Of a DNA stretch of 64,000 nucleotides, positions 1-13,720 are shown piece after piece (position 1 is the first letter of the stretch; every line of letters starts with the position of its first letter). A program made the translations under genes and the position numbers. The notes under the pieces were generated by a model. It was not told the DNA's origin, did not search any database, and worked only from the letters and a program-made list of their open reading frames with translations. The stretch lies in the NCBI GenBank assembly GCA_020072785.1, contig JAIQGG010000002.1, positions 496,001 to 560,000 of the forward strand, in the 5' to 3' direction. This DNA comes from Terriglobia bacterium. Lineage in GTDB: Bacteria; Acidobacteriota; Terriglobia; Acidiferrales; UBA7541.

Positions 1-2
1 GG

Positions 3-347
3 GACATCCAGCAGCTCGTCACGCCGTTCGATGCCCAGGCCCTGGTGCATCCCTGGCGGCATCGCGATCCGCGCGTGGACGCGCTGTGCGATGAGTTGCA
101 GCAGATCGTCGCCGCGAGCGAGAAGCTGAAGCGGCCGCGCCACGCCATTTTCGAACGCGTCCTGCGCGCGGCGGAAGCTGCGGCGGGCGTGCGGGCAGCG
201 GAGGCGGCCCAGCCGGTGCTTGTGGCCCGCGCCGCCATCCCCTATCTCAACGAGCCCTGGTACTGTTGAGCCGAGCCGTCGCGGGACCAGTTGGTCCCCA
301 TCGCGCAAGCCAGGGAAGCGTTGAGTAAGGCCGAGTCGTTCGTCTAG
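3..347 (+). CDS. CUAEP-tail radical SAM selenoprotein, C-terminal part (5' end outside window)
   Basis: The reading frame is open from the left edge to a TGA at 267-269 and then to TAG at 345-347. The residues before the TGA read PYLNEPWYC and those after it read AEP. Reading TGA as selenocysteine (U) gives EPWYCUAEP, the signature tail of the family known as CUAEP/CCAEP-tail radical SAM (seleno)proteins; relatives carry Cys at the U position. A hairpin with a GU-containing loop lies directly downstream, as bacterial SECIS elements require. Only the tail domain is present here; the radical SAM core would lie upstream. Reading through adds 26 residues and leaves 10 nt to the next gene, as expected in an operon. 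The reaction catalysed by this family is not known to me. The alternative, that the protein ends at Cys before the TGA, would leave the conserved AEP untranslated. Confidence 0.8.
281..304 (+). promoter_or_regulatory. candidate bacterial SECIS hairpin
   Basis: GGGACC (283-288) and GGTCCC (293-298) form a perfect 6-bp stem closed by the tetraloop AGTT. Two further pairs (G281-C304, C282-G303) are possible across a small 3' bulge. The loop begins 19 nt after the TGA at 267-269 and contains GU. Known bacterial SECIS elements present a G and U in the apical loop 16-37 nt after the UGA for SelB binding. Fold and position agree; function is inferred. Confidence 0.65.
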
Positions 348-357
348 AAGGTCACCG

Positions 358-1689
358 ATGCATCAGGACGCAAACAACAAGAAGCGGTTGTTGCTCTTCA
401 CCAGCAAGCTGGGCTACCAGACGCGCAGCTTCGCCGAAGCCGCGCAAAAGCTCGGAGCGGAACTGGTCTTCGTGACCGACCGTTGCGGCCGGCTGGATGA
501 TCCCTGGGGCGACCACGCTATTCCCGTGCATTTCGAAAAGCCGGAAGCCGCCGCGGCAGCCGTACTGCAAGCGCAGCGCGGGCAGGCGCTGAACGGGGTG
601 CTGGCGCTGGGCGACCGCCCCGCGCTGGCCGCGGCGTATGCCGCGCGGGGCCTCGGCGTGCTGCACAACCACCCCGCGTCGGTGGAAGCCTGCCGCAGCA
701 AGCAGCGCATGCGCGAAGTTTTTCGCGAGGCGGGGATGCGCGTGCCGTGGTTCCGCGCGCTGCCGCTCACGCCGGCGCCGGAGCCCGCGCTGGCGGGTAT
801 TACGTTTCCCTGCGTGCTCAAGCCGCTCTCGCTTTCCGCCAGCACCGGCGTGATCCGCGCCAATTCGCGCGAGGAGTTTCTCACCGCGGCGGAACGCATC
901 CGCCGCCTGCTGGAATCGCCGGAGGTGCAGGCCACCCACGAGCCGCATCTCGACCGCATACTCGTGGAAGGCTACATCCCGGGCAGGGAAGTTTCCGTCG
1001 AGGGCCTGCTGACGGAGGGCGCGTTGCGCGTCCTGGCCATTTTCGACAAGCCGGAGCCGCTGGAAGGCCCCTTCTTCGAAGAGACGATCTACGTGACGCC
1101 GTCGCGCCTGAGCGCGGACGAGCAGCGCACCATCGCGCGCACCGCGCAGGAAGCCGTGCGCGCCCTGGGGCTGCTGCACGGGCCGGTGCACGTGGAGTTG
1201 CGCGTGAATGAAGATGGGGTATGGCCGCTGGAAGTGGCGCCGCGGCCGATCGGCGGCCTGTGCTCGCGCGCTCTGCGCTTTCAGGCGGACGCCGCGGCCG
1301 AACCCATTTTCCTGGAGGAACTGCTGCTGCGCCATGCCCTGGGCTTGCCGGGAAGTGACTGGCCGCGCGAGCGCGCAGCCTCCGGGGTGATGATGATTCC
1401 GGTGCCAAAGAGCGGCGTGCTGGGGAAGGTGGAGGGAGAAGAGGCGGCGCGGGCCACCCCGGGAATTACCGAGCTGCAGATCACCGCGCGGCTGTACGAC
1501 TACATCGCCGCATGGCCCGAAGGGTCGAGCTATCTGGGATTTCTCTTCGCGCGAGGCGGCAGCGCGGCCGATGCGGAAGCCGCATTGCGCCAGGCGCATG
1601 CGCGATTGCACTTCACGCTGGCGCCGCGCCTGCCGGTGGAGCACCCGGCCGCACGGTCAACAGCGACCGGGGCCGGGCAGCAGGATTAG
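358..1689 (+). CDS. ATP-grasp domain carboxylate-amine/thiol ligase
   Basis: The 443-residue protein has an ATP-grasp fold, which joins a carboxylate to an amine or thiol through an acyl-phosphate. An N-terminal Rossmann-like segment (to about residue 120) precedes the ATP-binding part, where FPCVLKPLSLSASTGVI carries the nucleotide-contacting Lys. EGYIPGREVSVEGLL and the Mg-binding LEVAPRPIGG follow, as in dapdiamide- and L-amino-acid-ligase-like enzymes. The start has AGAAGG 6 nt upstream and lies 10 nt after the selenoprotein stop, so the two are probably co-transcribed; a shared peptide or cofactor pathway is possible but unproven. The 3' end overlaps the convergent YggX-like gene by 4 nt. 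The substrate is unknown. Confidence 0.8.
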   Translation: MHQDANNKKRLLLFTSKLGYQTRSFAEAAQKLGAELVFVTDRCGRLDDPWGDHAIPVHFEKPEAAAAAVLQAQRGQALNGVLALGDRPALAAAYAARGLGVLHNHPASVEACRSKQRMREVFREAGMRVPWFRALPLTPAPEPALAGITFPCVLKPLSLSASTGVIRANSREEFLTAAERIRRLLESPEVQATHEPHLDRILVEGYIPGREVSVEGLLTEGALRVLAIFDKPEPLEGPFFEETIYVTPSRLSADEQRTIARTAQEAVRALGLLHGPVHVELRVNEDGVWPLEVAPRPIGGLCSRALRFQADAAAEPIFLEELLLRHALGLPGSDWPRERAASGVMMIPVPKSGVLGKVEGEEAARATPGITELQITARLYDYIAAWPEGSSYLGFLFARGGSAADAEAALRQAHARLHFTLAPRLPVEHPAARSTATGAGQQD

Positions 1690-2018
1690 CCCTTGGCCTT
1701 GGGGGCCACGTAGCCTTCCGGCAGTTTGGCGCCTTCCCCGAAGAAAAACTGCTCCATCTGTTCTTCCATGATCTTCTGGGAGTTGGGGTCCAGGGGATTC
1801 AGCCGGTACTCGTTCATCAGCATCTTGGAATATTCTACCCACATCTTCCACGCGTCTTTCGAAACGTTCTCGTAGATGCGCTGGCCCAGTTCGCCCTTCC
1901 AGGGAACGCGATCCAGCCCCGGCAATTCTTTGCCGATCTTCACGCACTTCACCATGCGCGTGCCCGGCTTGACCGGCTCCGGCGCGGGGGGCTGCGAACC
2001 GCAACAATCGTTGGCCAT
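1686..2018 (-). CDS. yggX: Fe(2+)-trafficking / oxidative damage protection protein, YggX-like
   Basis: This 110-residue protein contains VKCVKIGKELPGLDRVPWKG near its N-terminus and GQRIYENVSKDAWKMW in the middle, the conserved blocks of the YggX family. YggX proteins are cytosolic; they are linked to iron handling and to protection of Fe-S enzymes from oxidation. A 22-residue extension with a CC pair and a PPAPEPVKP stretch precedes the core, so the protein is a little longer than the usual 90 residues. The start has a strong AGGAGG ribosome site. The reading frame continues far upstream, but those residues do not resemble the family and the ribosome site fixes this start. Confidence 0.88.
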   Translation of the reverse strand: MANDCCGSQPPAPEPVKPGTRMVKCVKIGKELPGLDRVPWKGELGQRIYENVSKDAWKMWVEYSKMLMNEYRLNPLDPNSQKIMEEQMEQFFFGEGAKLPEGYVAPKAKG

Positions 2019-9116: not shown

Positions 9117-10505
9117 TCAAACGGAGCTGGTCCGCGGATAGCACTCGGCGATTTCCGGGGCCGCGCTCGTTCCGGAGGCCCGCTCCCCGCCGCTCTCCTC
9201 GGCGGGGAAGTGCGGGAGAGTGCGCGGCCAGGGTTTGCGGCGGCGGTAGTTGCGCGCCAGCTCGAGGAAGATGCCGATGTCGCGTTCCAGGTCGGACTGC
9301 GTCTCGTCGCAGTAGAAGTTGCGGATGGGGATCTCGGCGTGCTCCTTGCTGATCAGCGGGTAGATGGCCTCGCCGACGATTCCGTTCATGCACGTGAACG
9401 GGCTGATATCCACGATGCCGTCCACGCCCTTCTTGGCCAGGTAGATGCTCCGCCCGGCGTTTACCGTCATCTCCCCCAGCGCGCCGTCCGCGGGCAGATA
9501 CGGCTCGGCAAGCTCCAGCACCTCGCCGATATCTTCCGGCTCTTCATAGCCGCGGAAATCTGCGGTGAAGAGCGCGCGCAGCTCCTCTTCGTCCTTGCGC
9601 TGGAAATGCGTGCGGATGGTTGAGCGGAGCATCTGCCCGGAAATCCGCTTGCCTTTCAGCTTGAGCACGCGCCGCTCGTCCGCATTCGTGTACCAGATCC
9701 ACTCCGAGATGTCGCTCATCCATACTTCCGCGCCAAAGCGCTCCAGCAGGCGCACCAGCTCCTGGTTGCTGTAGATGTTCAGGCGGCAGTAGATCTCGCC
9801 CACCGCGCCGATCAGCGGCCGCTCCGGATCGAAGCGCACCGGCACCATGCGGAAGCGGCGGCGCGCCCGGCGCAGGCTCGCCTGCAGCTTGCGCATCTGC
9901 ATCCCGTCGTTCGGCCAGGGAACTTCCAGGCAGCGGCAGACGTCCGCGACGCTGGCCTCGTGCGCCGCGTCAGCGTCGCCCGGCATCGTCTCGTACGGGC
10001 GTGTCTTCAACAGGCATTTCAGCAGCAGGTCTCCGGCGACAAGGGCGCGCCAGGCGCTGCGCGCGAACAGGTTGGAGGCCGGCCCGAAGTCGCTGTAGCC
10101 GGTCTCGCAGGTCGGGGCCAGGATGGTGACGCCCGAGTAGCCCAGGGTTGCGAACGTCGACTTCATCAGAGGAACGTACTGCCCGAAGCGGCAGGGTCCC
10201 TGGCCGGTGGCCATGAAAAAAGCCACTTTGTCCGGATCGGTTCCCGGCTGCTCCAGAATTTTCACGCAGTCGCCCATGGTGACCCGTGCGGGATAGCATT
10301 CATCGCCGCAGGTGTGGCGCGCGCCCAGGGCACGCGTGCGTTCGTCCGACGGGGGAGTCGCTTCCGCATCCAGCCCCAGCGAGCGCAGCATGGCCGCAAA
10401 AATCTGCGTGCTGCCGTCGCTCATGCGCGGAATCCACACTTTCTTTCCGGCGAGGGGGTGGGATGCCGGGATTTGTCTTGGGTTTTTCAGTGGGCTGTTG
10501 CGCAT
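9117..10505 (-). CDS. acyl-CoA dehydratase activase-related protein, C-terminal component (HgdB-like part)
   Basis: This 462-residue protein corresponds to the last third of the very long (about 1400-residue) CoA-dehydratase-activase proteins. It contains the Cys-rich HTCGDECYPARVTMG, MATGQGPCRFGQY, LAPTCETGYSDFG and PFTCMNGIVGEAIYPLI segments, which resemble the Fe-S binding regions of 2-hydroxyacyl-CoA dehydratase subunits. Its start overlaps the end of the upstream activase gene by 19 nt, so the two are translationally linked. Role by family: ATP-driven electron transfer to radical dehydratases or related reductases; the actual partner is not in this window. The C-terminal tail after residue 430 is low in complexity. 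Confidence 0.78.
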   Translation of the reverse strand: MRNSPLKNPRQIPASHPLAGKKVWIPRMSDGSTQIFAAMLRSLGLDAEATPPSDERTRALGARHTCGDECYPARVTMGDCVKILEQPGTDPDKVAFFMATGQGPCRFGQYVPLMKSTFATLGYSGVTILAPTCETGYSDFGPASNLFARSAWRALVAGDLLLKCLLKTRPYETMPGDADAAHEASVADVCRCLEVPWPNDGMQMRKLQASLRRARRRFRMVPVRFDPERPLIGAVGEIYCRLNIYSNQELVRLLERFGAEVWMSDISEWIWYTNADERRVLKLKGKRISGQMLRSTIRTHFQRKDEEELRALFTADFRGYEEPEDIGEVLELAEPYLPADGALGEMTVNAGRSIYLAKKGVDGIVDISPFTCMNGIVGEAIYPLISKEHAEIPIRNFYCDETQSDLERDIGIFLELARNYRRRKPWPRTLPHFPAEESGGERASGTSAAPEIAECYPRTSSV

Positions 10506-13500
10506 CGCAGGATTCCTTTGCTGTCCAGATAGGCTTCGCAGCGCGTCAGGTAGCCGGCGTCGTTGCCGTGCCCGTCGAATTGCAGGACCAGATACGGCGC
10601 CTGGGCCACTTCGCGCAGGAAATGCTTGATGAAGGAGTCCGGGCCGCATTTGAAATTGGTGATGTAGATGATGTGCAGGCGCGGATTCCGGCGCGCCAGG
10701 TTCCCCGCGGCCAGGATGCGCCGCCCGGAGTTCCAGAACATGTTGGGGTGAAGAGTGTCGGTAGGCTGCGCGTCCAGCGGCAGGAAGTCCATCGGCAACA
10801 CGTTCACGCCGTAATGATCGCGCAGCTTGCGCGGGATGTCGCAATTGCTGTTGCGGTCGTACAGGTTGTACGGCCGCCCCACGAGCAGCACGCCTGGTTC
10901 CCCGCTGCGCTCCAGCGTGTCCCAGGCCGCGCGGCCCGCCTCCAGCATCCTTTCCGAGAACTCCGCCTGCGCCGCATAGGCCGCTTCCACGGCGGCATCG
11001 CTGGCCCAGCGCCGCACGCCCAGCCGGGAGAAATATTCGCCGAGCTGCTTCTTGACGTGCCCGCGCCCTAGCCGGAAATAAAGCGTGGGCGCGAGGAAGC
11101 GTTCGGCCTGCGGCGCGAAGTCCGGCGCCGCACGGATGACGAAGGGCAGCGTTTGGTTCCACGGACAGAGGTGCGAGGCCACCTTGGTGTTCGGCGCTTC
11201 GTGGTCCAGTACGTTGGGCAGGAGAACGTAGTCGGCGGGCGCATAGTCCGCGCAGCCGTGCAGCAGAGCGTGCACATGGCCGTGCGCCAATTGCACCGGG
11301 TAACATGGCTCGGCCACGCTCAGCTCCGCGCTCTGCCGCTCCACCGGCCGGGAAACGACCACCGCAAAGCCCAGCTCTTCGAGGTAGCGCCGCCAAAACG
11401 GGAAGCGATCGTAGAAATACATCGCGCGGGGAATCCCGATGCGCACTCCGCGAACGGAACCAGGCCGCCGGCCGTTCTCTGCTTCGGGATGCCCGTCGTC
11501 CAGAAGGCGCTCGCGCAGGGCCAGCAAGTCTTCCAGGACCGGCTTGTGGCTGGTGCGCGTGCGTTTGCGGAACTTGTCCGAACACTTGTCGCCCCAGTAG
11601 GTCTTCTGCCCGTCCACCTTGATCTCTTTCATCTCGCAATAGTTGGAGCAGGCCTTGCAGGTGAACTCCCGGGTTTCGAAATGGGCCTGGTTCAGGTCGT
11701 AGCCGCGGAAAGTAGAGACGGAGTCAATGCGCGGACCCCCGCGCGCGGCACCGGCGGCTCCGGCCGAGGCGGCAACCGCTACGGCGCGCGGTTTTGCCCG
11801 GCAGACCTCCTGCGCGATCAGCGCCATGCCGATGGCTCCGATCACGCCGTTGTGCGGCGGCACGATGATGGGCTGGCCGAGGATTTGCGAGAAGGCCGCG
11901 GCCACGGCGTCGTTGTACGCCGTCCCGCCCTGAAAATAGATCACCTTGCCGATCTTGCGGTTGCGCACCACGCGATTGAGATAATTCAGGGCGATGGAGT
12001 AGGCCAGCCCCGCCGCCAGGTCCTCCAGCCGCGCGCCGCGCTGCATCCAGGCGGTGACGTCGCGCTCCATGAACACCGTGCAGCGCTCGCCGAGGTGCAC
12101 CGGTGCGGCCGAAGCCAGCGCCAGCCGCGCGAACTCCTCCTTGATGGAGATGCCCATGCGCTCGGCCTGCTCCTCCAGAAACGAGCCGGTGCCCGCGGCG
12201 CAGGCTTCGTTCATCGCGAAGTCCACGACCACGCCGCGGTCGATGGAGATGAACTTGGAATCCTGCCCACCGATTTCGAAGATGGTGTCCACCGTGGCGT
12301 TGCGCTCTTCTTCGCGCACTTCACCCAGCGCGCGGCCGCGCACCAGCCGCTCGTGCACGTACAGCGCGCCGGTCTTGTGCGCGGTGATCTCATCGTTCAC
12401 GGTGTCCGCGCCGACCAGTTCGCCGATCAGCTCCCGCCCGGAGCCCGTTGTGCCCACGCCGCAGATGGTGATGCGCGCGCCGAGCAGGCCGTCGATCTCG
12501 TGCAACCCTTCGTTCACTACTTCGATCGGCCGCCCTGCAGTGCGCAGGTAGATCTGGTGCAGCAGGCGCCCGTCTTCGTCCAGCACCGCGAGATTCGTGC
12601 TCACCGAGCCGATGTCGATCCCCAGATAGGCGGGAAGCCGCCCGCGGCCCGCTTCCGGCAGCGGCTCGGTGCGCGAAGCTTCGGGATGATCGCGCAGCAG
12701 CAGCACGCGCTGCATGGAAAGCGGCTCGAGCGGCGCGCTGGCCTCCGCCGTGGTGCTGTCTCCCCCTGCTGTATGCCTGCTCCACACGGTGGATGGCCTG
12801 CGGCTCTCCTCGTATTCCAGCAGCGCGCAGCCGAGCGCACCGAGCCACGCATACCACTCCGGCACGAAGAGCTCTTCCGGCGCCAGATGAAAGGCGTCGC
12901 GCAGGGCCTGCACTACCCCGGCGTTTTGCGAGACCGCGCCGATCAGCGCTACCCGCGGCACCACCGGCTTACCTTTCACGATGTTGCTCTTGAAATTCCG
13001 CGCCACCGCCTCGCACAGCCCTTTCAGCACCTCCCCGGTGCCGTAGCCGCGCTGCTGCGCGTGGATCATGTCCGACTTCGCGAAGACCGAGCAGCGCCCG
13101 GCAATCTGCGCCGCGCGCTTCGCTTCGCCCACCACTGCGCCGATCTCTTCCACGCGGTAGCGCAGCCGCGTCGCCTGCTGGTCGAGGAACGAGCCCGTGC
13201 CCGCAGCGCACTCTCCGCTCGTCGAATAGTCCACAATGCCCGCGGAAGCCGCGCCGTCCCCGTGGTTGCCGCCATTGCCGCTGGAGGCACCCACTCCACC
13301 CAGCCGCAGGTATTTGGAGCTTTCCCCGCCAATTTCGAACACCGTGCGCACGCCGGGATACAGCCGGGCCACGCTGCAGGCGATGGCCTTGAATTCGTTT
13401 TCCACGGGAGCGTGCGCCACGCGCGCGGCCAGCCGCGCACCCGAACCGGTCACACGGATGCCGCTCAGACGCGTACGCGGCACGCAACGGTAGATCGCCT

Positions 13501-13720
13501 GCAACGATTCGCTGACGCACTGCACCGGATTGCCCAGGGTGCGGCGATAGCTGGAGACGGCCAGGGACAATTCCGGAGCGTCCGCGGATTGGCCGGGGAT
13601 GCTTTGGAATCCGCACCCCGCGGCCAGCAGTGCGCCGAGCAGGTCTGCATCTTCCGGCGGTGCGGCGGCGGCCCATTTGAGGCTGACGCTGCCGAGATCC
13701 AGTCCGAGGAAAATGCCCAT
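10487..13720 (-). CDS. acyl-CoA dehydratase activase with two BadF/BcrA/HgdC ATPase modules
   Basis: The 1077-residue protein begins MGIFLGLDLGSVSLKW, an ASKHA phosphate-1 loop, and repeats the module from about residue 350 (YLGIDIGSVSTNLAVLDEDG). Each copy keeps both Cys ligands that bridge a [4Fe-4S] cluster between activase subunits: CAAGTGSFLDQQA and GRCSVFAKSD in copy one, CAAGTGSFLEEQA and ERCTVFMERD in copy two. The last 400 residues (CKACSNYCEMKEI, GIPRAMYFYDRFPFW, GRPYNLYDRNSNCDIP) are the DUF2229-type dehydratase-like part. By family, ATP hydrolysis energises one electron for a dehydratase. Many bacteria have this and the next gene as one protein; here they are split with an overlap. 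Confidence 0.85.
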   Translation of the reverse strand: MGIFLGLDLGSVSLKWAAAAPPEDADLLGALLAAGCGFQSIPGQSADAPELSLAVSSYRRTLGNPVQCVSESLQAIYRCVPRTRLSGIRVTGSGARLAARVAHAPVENEFKAIACSVARLYPGVRTVFEIGGESSKYLRLGGVGASSGNGGNHGDGAASAGIVDYSTSGECAAGTGSFLDQQATRLRYRVEEIGAVVGEAKRAAQIAGRCSVFAKSDMIHAQQRGYGTGEVLKGLCEAVARNFKSNIVKGKPVVPRVALIGAVSQNAGVVQALRDAFHLAPEELFVPEWYAWLGALGCALLEYEESRRPSTVWSRHTAGGDSTTAEASAPLEPLSMQRVLLLRDHPEASRTEPLPEAGRGRLPAYLGIDIGSVSTNLAVLDEDGRLLHQIYLRTAGRPIEVVNEGLHEIDGLLGARITICGVGTTGSGRELIGELVGADTVNDEITAHKTGALYVHERLVRGRALGEVREEERNATVDTIFEIGGQDSKFISIDRGVVVDFAMNEACAAGTGSFLEEQAERMGISIKEEFARLALASAAPVHLGERCTVFMERDVTAWMQRGARLEDLAAGLAYSIALNYLNRVVRNRKIGKVIYFQGGTAYNDAVAAAFSQILGQPIIVPPHNGVIGAIGMALIAQEVCRAKPRAVAVAASAGAAGAARGGPRIDSVSTFRGYDLNQAHFETREFTCKACSNYCEMKEIKVDGQKTYWGDKCSDKFRKRTRTSHKPVLEDLLALRERLLDDGHPEAENGRRPGSVRGVRIGIPRAMYFYDRFPFWRRYLEELGFAVVVSRPVERQSAELSVAEPCYPVQLAHGHVHALLHGCADYAPADYVLLPNVLDHEAPNTKVASHLCPWNQTLPFVIRAAPDFAPQAERFLAPTLYFRLGRGHVKKQLGEYFSRLGVRRWASDAAVEAAYAAQAEFSERMLEAGRAAWDTLERSGEPGVLLVGRPYNLYDRNSNCDIPRKLRDHYGVNVLPMDFLPLDAQPTDTLHPNMFWNSGRRILAAGNLARRNPRLHIIYITNFKCGPDSFIKHFLREVAQAPYLVLQFDGHGNDAGYLTRCEAYLDSKGILRCATAH

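What the first reader, a model, noticed from the sequence alone, without database searches (positions are those of the whole stretch)
261..347. In-frame TGA read as selenocysteine in a CUAEP tail, with SECIS-like hairpin
Read through, the codons around 267-269 give EPWYCUAEP, the exact family signature, and a hairpin with a GU loop lies 19 nt after the TGA. Both the conserved residues after the stop and the RNA structure argue for recoding. The family's biochemistry is, to my knowledge, undescribed, and this gene directly precedes an ATP-grasp ligase, so a selenium-dependent modification pathway is possible.
Basis: partly seen in the sequence, partly recalled or inferred. Interest (0 to 1): 0.85.

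Follow-up and report, generated by a model that had tools for sequence, protein, structure and literature searches.

The report
Selenocysteine tail of an ArsL-like enzyme
A soil bacterium reads a stop codon as the rare amino acid selenocysteine in the tail of a radical enzyme; this was already predicted for the enzyme's family, but its closest characterised relative builds an arsenic antibiotic and it travels with one dedicated peptide-forming enzyme, so a widespread uncharted pathway can now be tested.

Summary
The TGA at 267-269 is read through in a CUAEP/CCAEP-tail radical SAM protein (NCBIfam NF040546, 644 bits against a cut-off of 500). The gene starts about 1.1 kb upstream of the window. 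Its own genome, an Acidobacteriota (Terriglobia, Ca. Acidiferrales) soil MAG, has SelA, SelB, a SelD that itself contains TGA, and two tRNA-Sec genes. In 60 same-family genomes with a readable tail, 34 have TGA and 26 have TGC/TGT at the same codon, always followed by AEP. The hairpin meets all four published bacterial SECIS criteria, covaries across phyla and decays in the Cys forms. Selenocysteine in this family is already in NCBIfam, although a 2026 review of 119 prokaryotic selenoprotein families does not list it: a new member of a known kind.

Function is inferred. The nearest characterised family is ArsL (arsinothricin synthase; reciprocal), which ends in RCCLKC. The adjacent ATP-grasp/LAL_C2 ligase is the only one in the genome and is beside the gene in several phyla. 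Three of four ArsL-type clusters inspected also carry an ATP-grasp ligase. Best model: the Cys-Sec tail presents a soft-element substrate to an ArsL-like radical reaction, and the ligase makes a peptide of the product. No arsenic genes lie nearby, so the element is unproven.

The parts
1..347 (+). 3' end of the CUAEP-tail radical SAM selenoprotein gene (starts with GTG at window -1107, outside the window)
   Evidence: NF040546 644 bits for the whole protein, cut-off 500; Radical_SAM PF04055 and weak B12-binding PF02310; coordinates
267..269 (+). UGA read as selenocysteine (C-U pair of EPWYCUAEP)
   Evidence: Cys/Sec exchange at this codon in 60 same-family genomes; SelA, SelB, SelD and tRNA-Sec in the genome
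283..298 (+). bacterial SECIS hairpin, 6 bp stem, loop AGUU at 289-292
   Evidence: fold -11.5 kcal/mol; covariation in relatives; bSECIS criteria of PMC13188914
270..344 (+). AEP signature and C-terminal extension translated only after read-through
   Evidence: AEP conserved in nearly all relatives, extension variable
358..1689 (+). ATP-grasp ligase with LAL_C2 domain, dedicated partner
   Evidence: PF13535 and PF18603; closest solved structure L-amino acid ligase BL00235, 3vot; the only LAL_C2 protein in the genome; neighbour in 87 of 120 loci
1686..2018 (-). YggX-type Fe(2+)-trafficking/oxidative damage protection protein, recurrent neighbour
   Evidence: NF003817 129 bits, cut-off 74; neighbour across Acidobacteriota in several orientations

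Best explanation
The gene encodes a genuine selenoprotein, a CUAEP-tail radical SAM enzyme (the recoding is well supported; the protein has not been seen). It works like ArsL: a reduced [4Fe-4S] cluster on CxxxCxxC cleaves SAM, and a vicinal Cys-Sec pair on a C-terminal tail holds a soft, thiophilic substrate, most simply a trivalent metalloid such as As(III), for C-element bond formation (inferred from homology to ArsL and from the shared tail dithiol). The product is an unusual amino acid, which the dedicated downstream ATP-grasp/LAL_C2 ligase joins to another amino acid (inferred from homology to L-amino acid ligases and from tight linkage). YggX and NfuA-type neighbours plausibly protect or load the Fe-S cluster (inferred).
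For: Recoding: complete Sec machinery; 34 TGA and 26 Cys copies at the same codon in one bacterial family; SECIS covariation, 29 double-changed cells against a shuffled mean of 8.1 and 96.9% of cells paired against at most 57% for slid versions (also 67); Cys forms lose the loop and stem; 32 of 34 Sec copies lie in genomes with selA, the two exceptions being 65% and 85% complete. ArsL likeness: NF040542 is the second-best family at 282 bits, next 42; a typical RCCLKC (ArsL-family) protein hits NF040546 with 373 bits, next 80; 29-34% identity over 87-88%; both end in a vicinal C-C or C-U pair; [quoted passage not shown] PMC12159101). Ligase: one LAL_C2 gene per relative genome, the one beside CUAEP wherever both were located; in 87 of 120 loci within 4 kb, on either side and strand, in several phyla; ATP-grasp genes also in the ArsL-type clusters of Priestia, Alicyclobacillus and Pantoea. 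ArsN1a-like acetyltransferases occur in 22 of 64 CUAEP genomes and 17 of 332 others.
Against: None of 120 CUAEP loci has ArsM, ArsR, ArsB, ArsQ or ArsN1 within 4 kb, while ArsL clusters are full of them, so arsenic may be wrong. The protein fails the ArsL model's own cut-off (282 against 450 bits). The ligases of the two cluster types are only distantly related, about 23-29% identical, and P. amygdali arsQLM has none. The ArsN1 association is post hoc, not clustered with CUAEP, confounded by descent (genus level p = 0.007), and the window's own genome has no ArsN1a match. The AlphaFold2 model leaves the tail at low to middling confidence, so its approach to the active site is untested.
Confidence: 0.45

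Rival explanations
1. A real selenoprotein, but the Cys-Sec tail is a redox element (a selenenylsulfide that reduces the Fe-S cluster or a disulfide intermediate), and the enzyme does canonical 5'-deoxyadenosyl or cobalamin-dependent chemistry in a small-molecule peptide or low-molecular-weight thiol pathway unrelated to metalloids.
For: No ars genes in any of 120 loci; N-terminal B12-binding-like fold and best PDB folds AprD4, TsrM, OxsB; Fe-S maintenance neighbours YggX and NfuA; many selenoproteins are thiol oxidoreductases (PMC13188914); widespread near-universal presence in some lineages suggests a housekeeping metabolite.
Against: Closest characterised family is ArsL, with no comparable score to canonical or B12 families; ArsL has the same weak B12-binding match and a tail dithiol.
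Confidence: 0.4
2. The TGA is an ordinary stop: the Cys-ending protein is the product and the AEP tail is a relic.
For: A hairpin of this kind follows 8% of TGAs in the window by chance; RefSeq ends the Thermomicrobium roseum protein at that Cys.
Against: AEP and the frame are conserved after TGA in many phyla; Cys codons replace TGA; stem covariation; complete Sec machinery.
Confidence: 0.03
3. The TGA is a sequencing or assembly error, or is read as another residue such as Trp.
For: The sequence is assembled from a metagenome.
Against: Independent genomes share TGA at this codon with a SECIS; the only sense substitute seen is Cys; a tRNA-Sec with anticodon tca is present.
Confidence: 0.01

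Closest known systems
NCBIfam NF040546, CUAEP/CCAEP-tail radical SAM (seleno)protein
   Same: Full-length match over the curated cut-off, CUAEP tail, Sec/Cys alternation
   Different: No difference found; the family has no published function in the papers held and is absent from the 119-family table of PMC13188914
ArsL, arsinothricin synthase, NF040542 RCCLKC-tail radical SAM protein
   Same: Reciprocal nearest family, CxxxCxxC, shared central motifs, vicinal dithiol or selenol-thiol tail, ATP-grasp gene in several clusters
   Different: Below the ArsL cut-off; tail is WYCUAEP after about 60-80 extra residues instead of a terminal RCCLKC; no arsenic genes nearby
L-amino acid ligase BL00235 (PDB 3vot) and BacD
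   Same: Same ATP-grasp_4 and LAL_C2 domains as the downstream gene (125 bits to 3vot)
   Different: Substrates here unknown; fixed genetic linkage to a radical SAM enzyme
TIGR04167 radical SAM selenoprotein and NF045646 TrsS
   Same: Radical SAM proteins with Sec, both listed in PMC13188914
   Different: Neither was among the families matched by this protein at E 0.001

Membership tests
NF040546 CUAEP/CCAEP-tail radical SAM (seleno)protein | Full-length score over the curated cut-off of 500 bits | tested here: met
   643.9 bits, profile 1-466 of 468
NF040546 CUAEP/CCAEP-tail radical SAM (seleno)protein | C-terminal CUAEP or CCAEP | tested here: met
   EPWYC-TGA-AEP
Bacterial selenoprotein gene | Sec machinery in the genome (selA, selB, selC, selD) | tested here: met
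   556, 356 and 349 bits for SelA, SelB and SelD; two tRNA-Sec with anticodon tca
Bacterial selenoprotein gene | SECIS: loop 3-9 nt, stem 4-16 bp, G in the first two loop positions, spacing 16-37 nt, MFE of -7.5 kcal/mol or lower | tested here: met
   4 nt, 6 bp, AGUU, 19 nt, -11.5 kcal/mol (criteria from PMC13188914); covariation
Bacterial selenoprotein gene | Cys homologues at the Sec position | tested here: met
   26 of 60 same-family tails have TGC or TGT
Bacterial selenoprotein gene | Selenium present in the protein | not testable with these tools
   Needs 75Se labelling or mass spectrometry
ArsL (NF040542) | Score over the cut-off of 450 bits | tested here: not met
   282 bits
ArsL (NF040542) | RCCLKC C-terminus | tested here: not met
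   Tail is CUAEP plus extension
ArsL (NF040542) | Arsenic gene context (arsQ, arsM, arsR) | tested here: not met
   0 of 120 loci within 4 kb
ArsL (NF040542) | 3-amino-3-carboxypropyl transfer to As(III) | not testable with these tools
   Enzyme assay needed
L-amino acid ligase (downstream gene) | ATP-grasp_4 plus LAL_C2 domains | tested here: met
   123 and 53.8 bits, cut-offs 27 and 29.4

The most novel reading that the evidence does not exclude
CUAEP enzymes are selenium-using cousins of ArsL that make a C-metalloid amino acid, which the dedicated ATP-grasp ligase turns into a dipeptide: a widespread, chromosomal organo-metalloid pathway in Acidobacteriota and several other soil and groundwater phyla, with the same ligation step hidden in known arsinothricin-type clusters.
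Probability: 0.25. Interest if true: 0.82.

Novelty: new member of a known kind. Interest (0 to 1): 0.5.

Why it matters
Selenocysteine here is secure enough that gene callers should extend these proteins: the RefSeq plasmid annotation of Thermomicrobium roseum still stops at the Cys. If the ArsL parallel holds, a two-enzyme cassette whose radical SAM gene is found in 64 of 396 sampled Acidobacteriota genomes and in several other phyla would make an unknown element-containing amino acid and its peptide, and would explain why a Cys-Sec pair is favoured: a selenolate is a stronger ligand for soft elements. It also makes a short list of testable enzymes, some from cultured strains.

Tried and rejected
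(2) Rfam on the window and on 200-420: no match. (3) Sec form against selA presence: Fisher p = 0.22, because most Cys-form genomes also keep selA; only genus g12, without selA in 5 of 6 genomes (a partial match in the sixth), is uniformly Cys in its five readable tails. (4) HgcAB-like/CpaM link seen at L197: rejected as general, since HgcAB-like proteins occur in only 2 of the 64 CUAEP genomes of the phylum sample and not in the window's genome. (5) Arsenic genes around CUAEP: none. (6) A simple stem-length score did not separate Sec from Cys within the family (p = 0.07) because of a bulged A, though it did across phyla (p = 1e-6); register-aware counts separate them. The two covariation alignments were sorted by loop length beforehand, so their percentage paired is flattered; the double changes are the better evidence. 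(7) Literature search for CUAEP, RCCLKC and NF040546: no papers held. (8) AlphaFold2 coordinates were not readable, so the distance from tail to cluster could not be measured.

Full report
1. The observation. The frame ending ...LNEPWYC meets TGA at 267-269 and goes on as AEPSRDQLVPIAQAREALSKAESFV to TAG at 345-347. The window starts inside the gene; in the assembly the ORF begins with GTG at window -1107. The hairpin 283-298 has a 6 bp stem and the loop AGUU, 19 nt after the TGA. It satisfies each of the four constraints of the bacterial SECIS model printed in PMC13188914. Such a hairpin alone is not rare: 119 of 1443 TGAs in the window have one at least as long.

2. Machinery. The window's own genome (98.9% complete) has SelA (556 bits, cut-off 268), SelB (356, cut-off 242), SelD (349, cut-off 125, itself with one in-frame TGA) and two tRNA-Sec genes 3.6 kb apart. 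Near relatives in genome contigs are Acidobacteriota MAGs (Terriglobia, Ca. Acidiferrales, gp2) from soil and groundwater.

3. Family evidence. The whole protein scores 644 bits against NF040546, named by NCBI as CUAEP/CCAEP-tail radical SAM (seleno)protein. In the same bacterial family 65 of 89 genomes have it. Of 60 readable tails, 34 have TGA and 26 have TGC or TGT, all EPWYC-x-AEP. In Sec forms the Cys codon before the TGA is TGT in 34 of 34, against TGC in 24 of 26 Cys forms, and the loop codon is TTG in 33 of 34, although TTG is only 15% of Leu codons in the body of these genes. The loop AGUU is kept in 33 of 33 distinct Sec sequences, and stem cells pair in 87%, against 56% in Cys forms. 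Across phyla the stem is rewritten with compensation: 29 double-changed cells against 8.1 expected from shuffles, and 13 against 4.4 in the four-base-loop class. A tree without the tail needs six Sec/Cys changes, at least four of them forced by well supported branches, so the exchange is recurrent. SelA is found in the genomes of 32 of 34 Sec copies; the exceptions are incomplete genomes. The Fisher test of form against selA is not significant (p = 0.22), because Cys forms mostly live in Sec-decoding genomes.

4. What the enzyme resembles. The second-best NCBIfam model is ArsL (282 bits); the third is 42 bits. A Priestia RCCLKC protein, which belongs to the ArsL family, hits NF040546 with 373 bits, with the next at 80. 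Identity is 29-34% over most of the length. The alignment keeps RGCxHxCxxC, DxDFFN and LTYDxT in most rows, and both families end in a vicinal pair, CC in RCCLKC and CU in CUAEP. ArsL moves the 3-amino-3-carboxypropyl group of SAM to As(III) (PMC8552651; PMC12159101). Fold search puts the model (pLDDT 86) near AprD4, TsrM, OxsB and MiaB, most of them radical SAM enzymes with a B12-binding-like domain; this does not discriminate chemistry.

5. The partner. The gene 10 nt downstream is an ATP-grasp ligase with an L-amino acid ligase C-terminal domain, closest in the PDB to BL00235. LAL_C2 occurs once in the window's genome and once in most relatives, and that copy is the neighbour of CUAEP wherever both were located. 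Over 120 loci (some of them near relatives) it is within 4 kb in 87, upstream, downstream or convergent, in Acidobacteriota, Methylomirabilota, Gemmatimonadota and Pseudomonadota. YggX is a second recurrent neighbour in Acidobacteriota, in either orientation, and an NfuA-like Fe-S carrier a third elsewhere. DUF169 is found in six loci. ArsL-type clusters of Priestia, Alicyclobacillus and Pantoea also carry an ATP-grasp gene, whereas that of P. amygdali does not. The two kinds of ligase are distant, so this is parallel gene content and not a shared cassette.

6. Arsenic or not. No arsenic gene lies within 4 kb of any of the 120 loci. ArsN1a-like acetyltransferases are commoner in CUAEP genomes (22 of 64 against 17 of 332; 13 of 47 against 17 of 164 genera, p = 0.007), but they are elsewhere in those genomes, the test was chosen after the fact, and the window's genome has none. 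I therefore keep the element open. Shown: recoding signals, family, linkage. Inferred: SAM cleavage mode, role of Cys-Sec as substrate ligand, ligation of the product.

7. Verdict. Recoding is confirmed as far as sequence can do it. It is a known feature of a curated but, in the papers held, unpublished family (absent from the table). The useful addition is the ArsL kinship together with the dedicated ligase, which turns an orphan selenoprotein into a concrete two-step hypothesis.

Noticed in passing
G000:C2:1112064-1112158 and 1115713-1115807 (L014, L013): Two tRNA-Sec genes 3.6 kb apart, 87 of 99 bases identical, both with anticodon tca; most Sec-decoding bacteria have one (from general knowledge).
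   Followed up: partly
L279:7372-7431 (Thermomicrobium roseum DSM 5159, WP_012643191.1): The annotated CUAEP protein ends at the Cys before TGA; the DNA continues AEP with a GGACCC-GUC-GGGUCC hairpin, so the RefSeq protein appears truncated at its Sec codon.
   Followed up: partly
L281:1741-2964, L282:1436-2668, L283:6572-7774: RCCLKC/ArsL-type arsenic clusters on Priestia, Alicyclobacillus and Pantoea plasmids contain an ATP-grasp ligase, which suggests a peptide of arsinothricin or a relative.
   Followed up: partly
L197:8001-12282: In a Pyrinomonadaceae MAG, CUAEP is followed on the same strand by DUF169, CpaM methyltransferase and an HgcAB-like fusion; the link is not general in the phylum.
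   Followed up: yes
window 1686-2018 and 64 of 120 CUAEP loci: A YggX-type Fe(2+)-trafficking gene sits next to the CUAEP/ATP-grasp pair across Acidobacteriota in different orientations.
   Followed up: partly
G000:C1:111200-112165 (L021): SelD of this genome has an in-frame TGA, so it is itself probably a selenoprotein.
   Followed up: no
window 9117-13720, minus strand: Two long overlapping minus-strand ORFs (9117-11639 and 10487-13720) read, by eye only, like BcrAD/BadFG-type activator and 2-hydroxyacyl-CoA dehydratase-like proteins, possibly one gene split by a frameshift.
   Followed up: no
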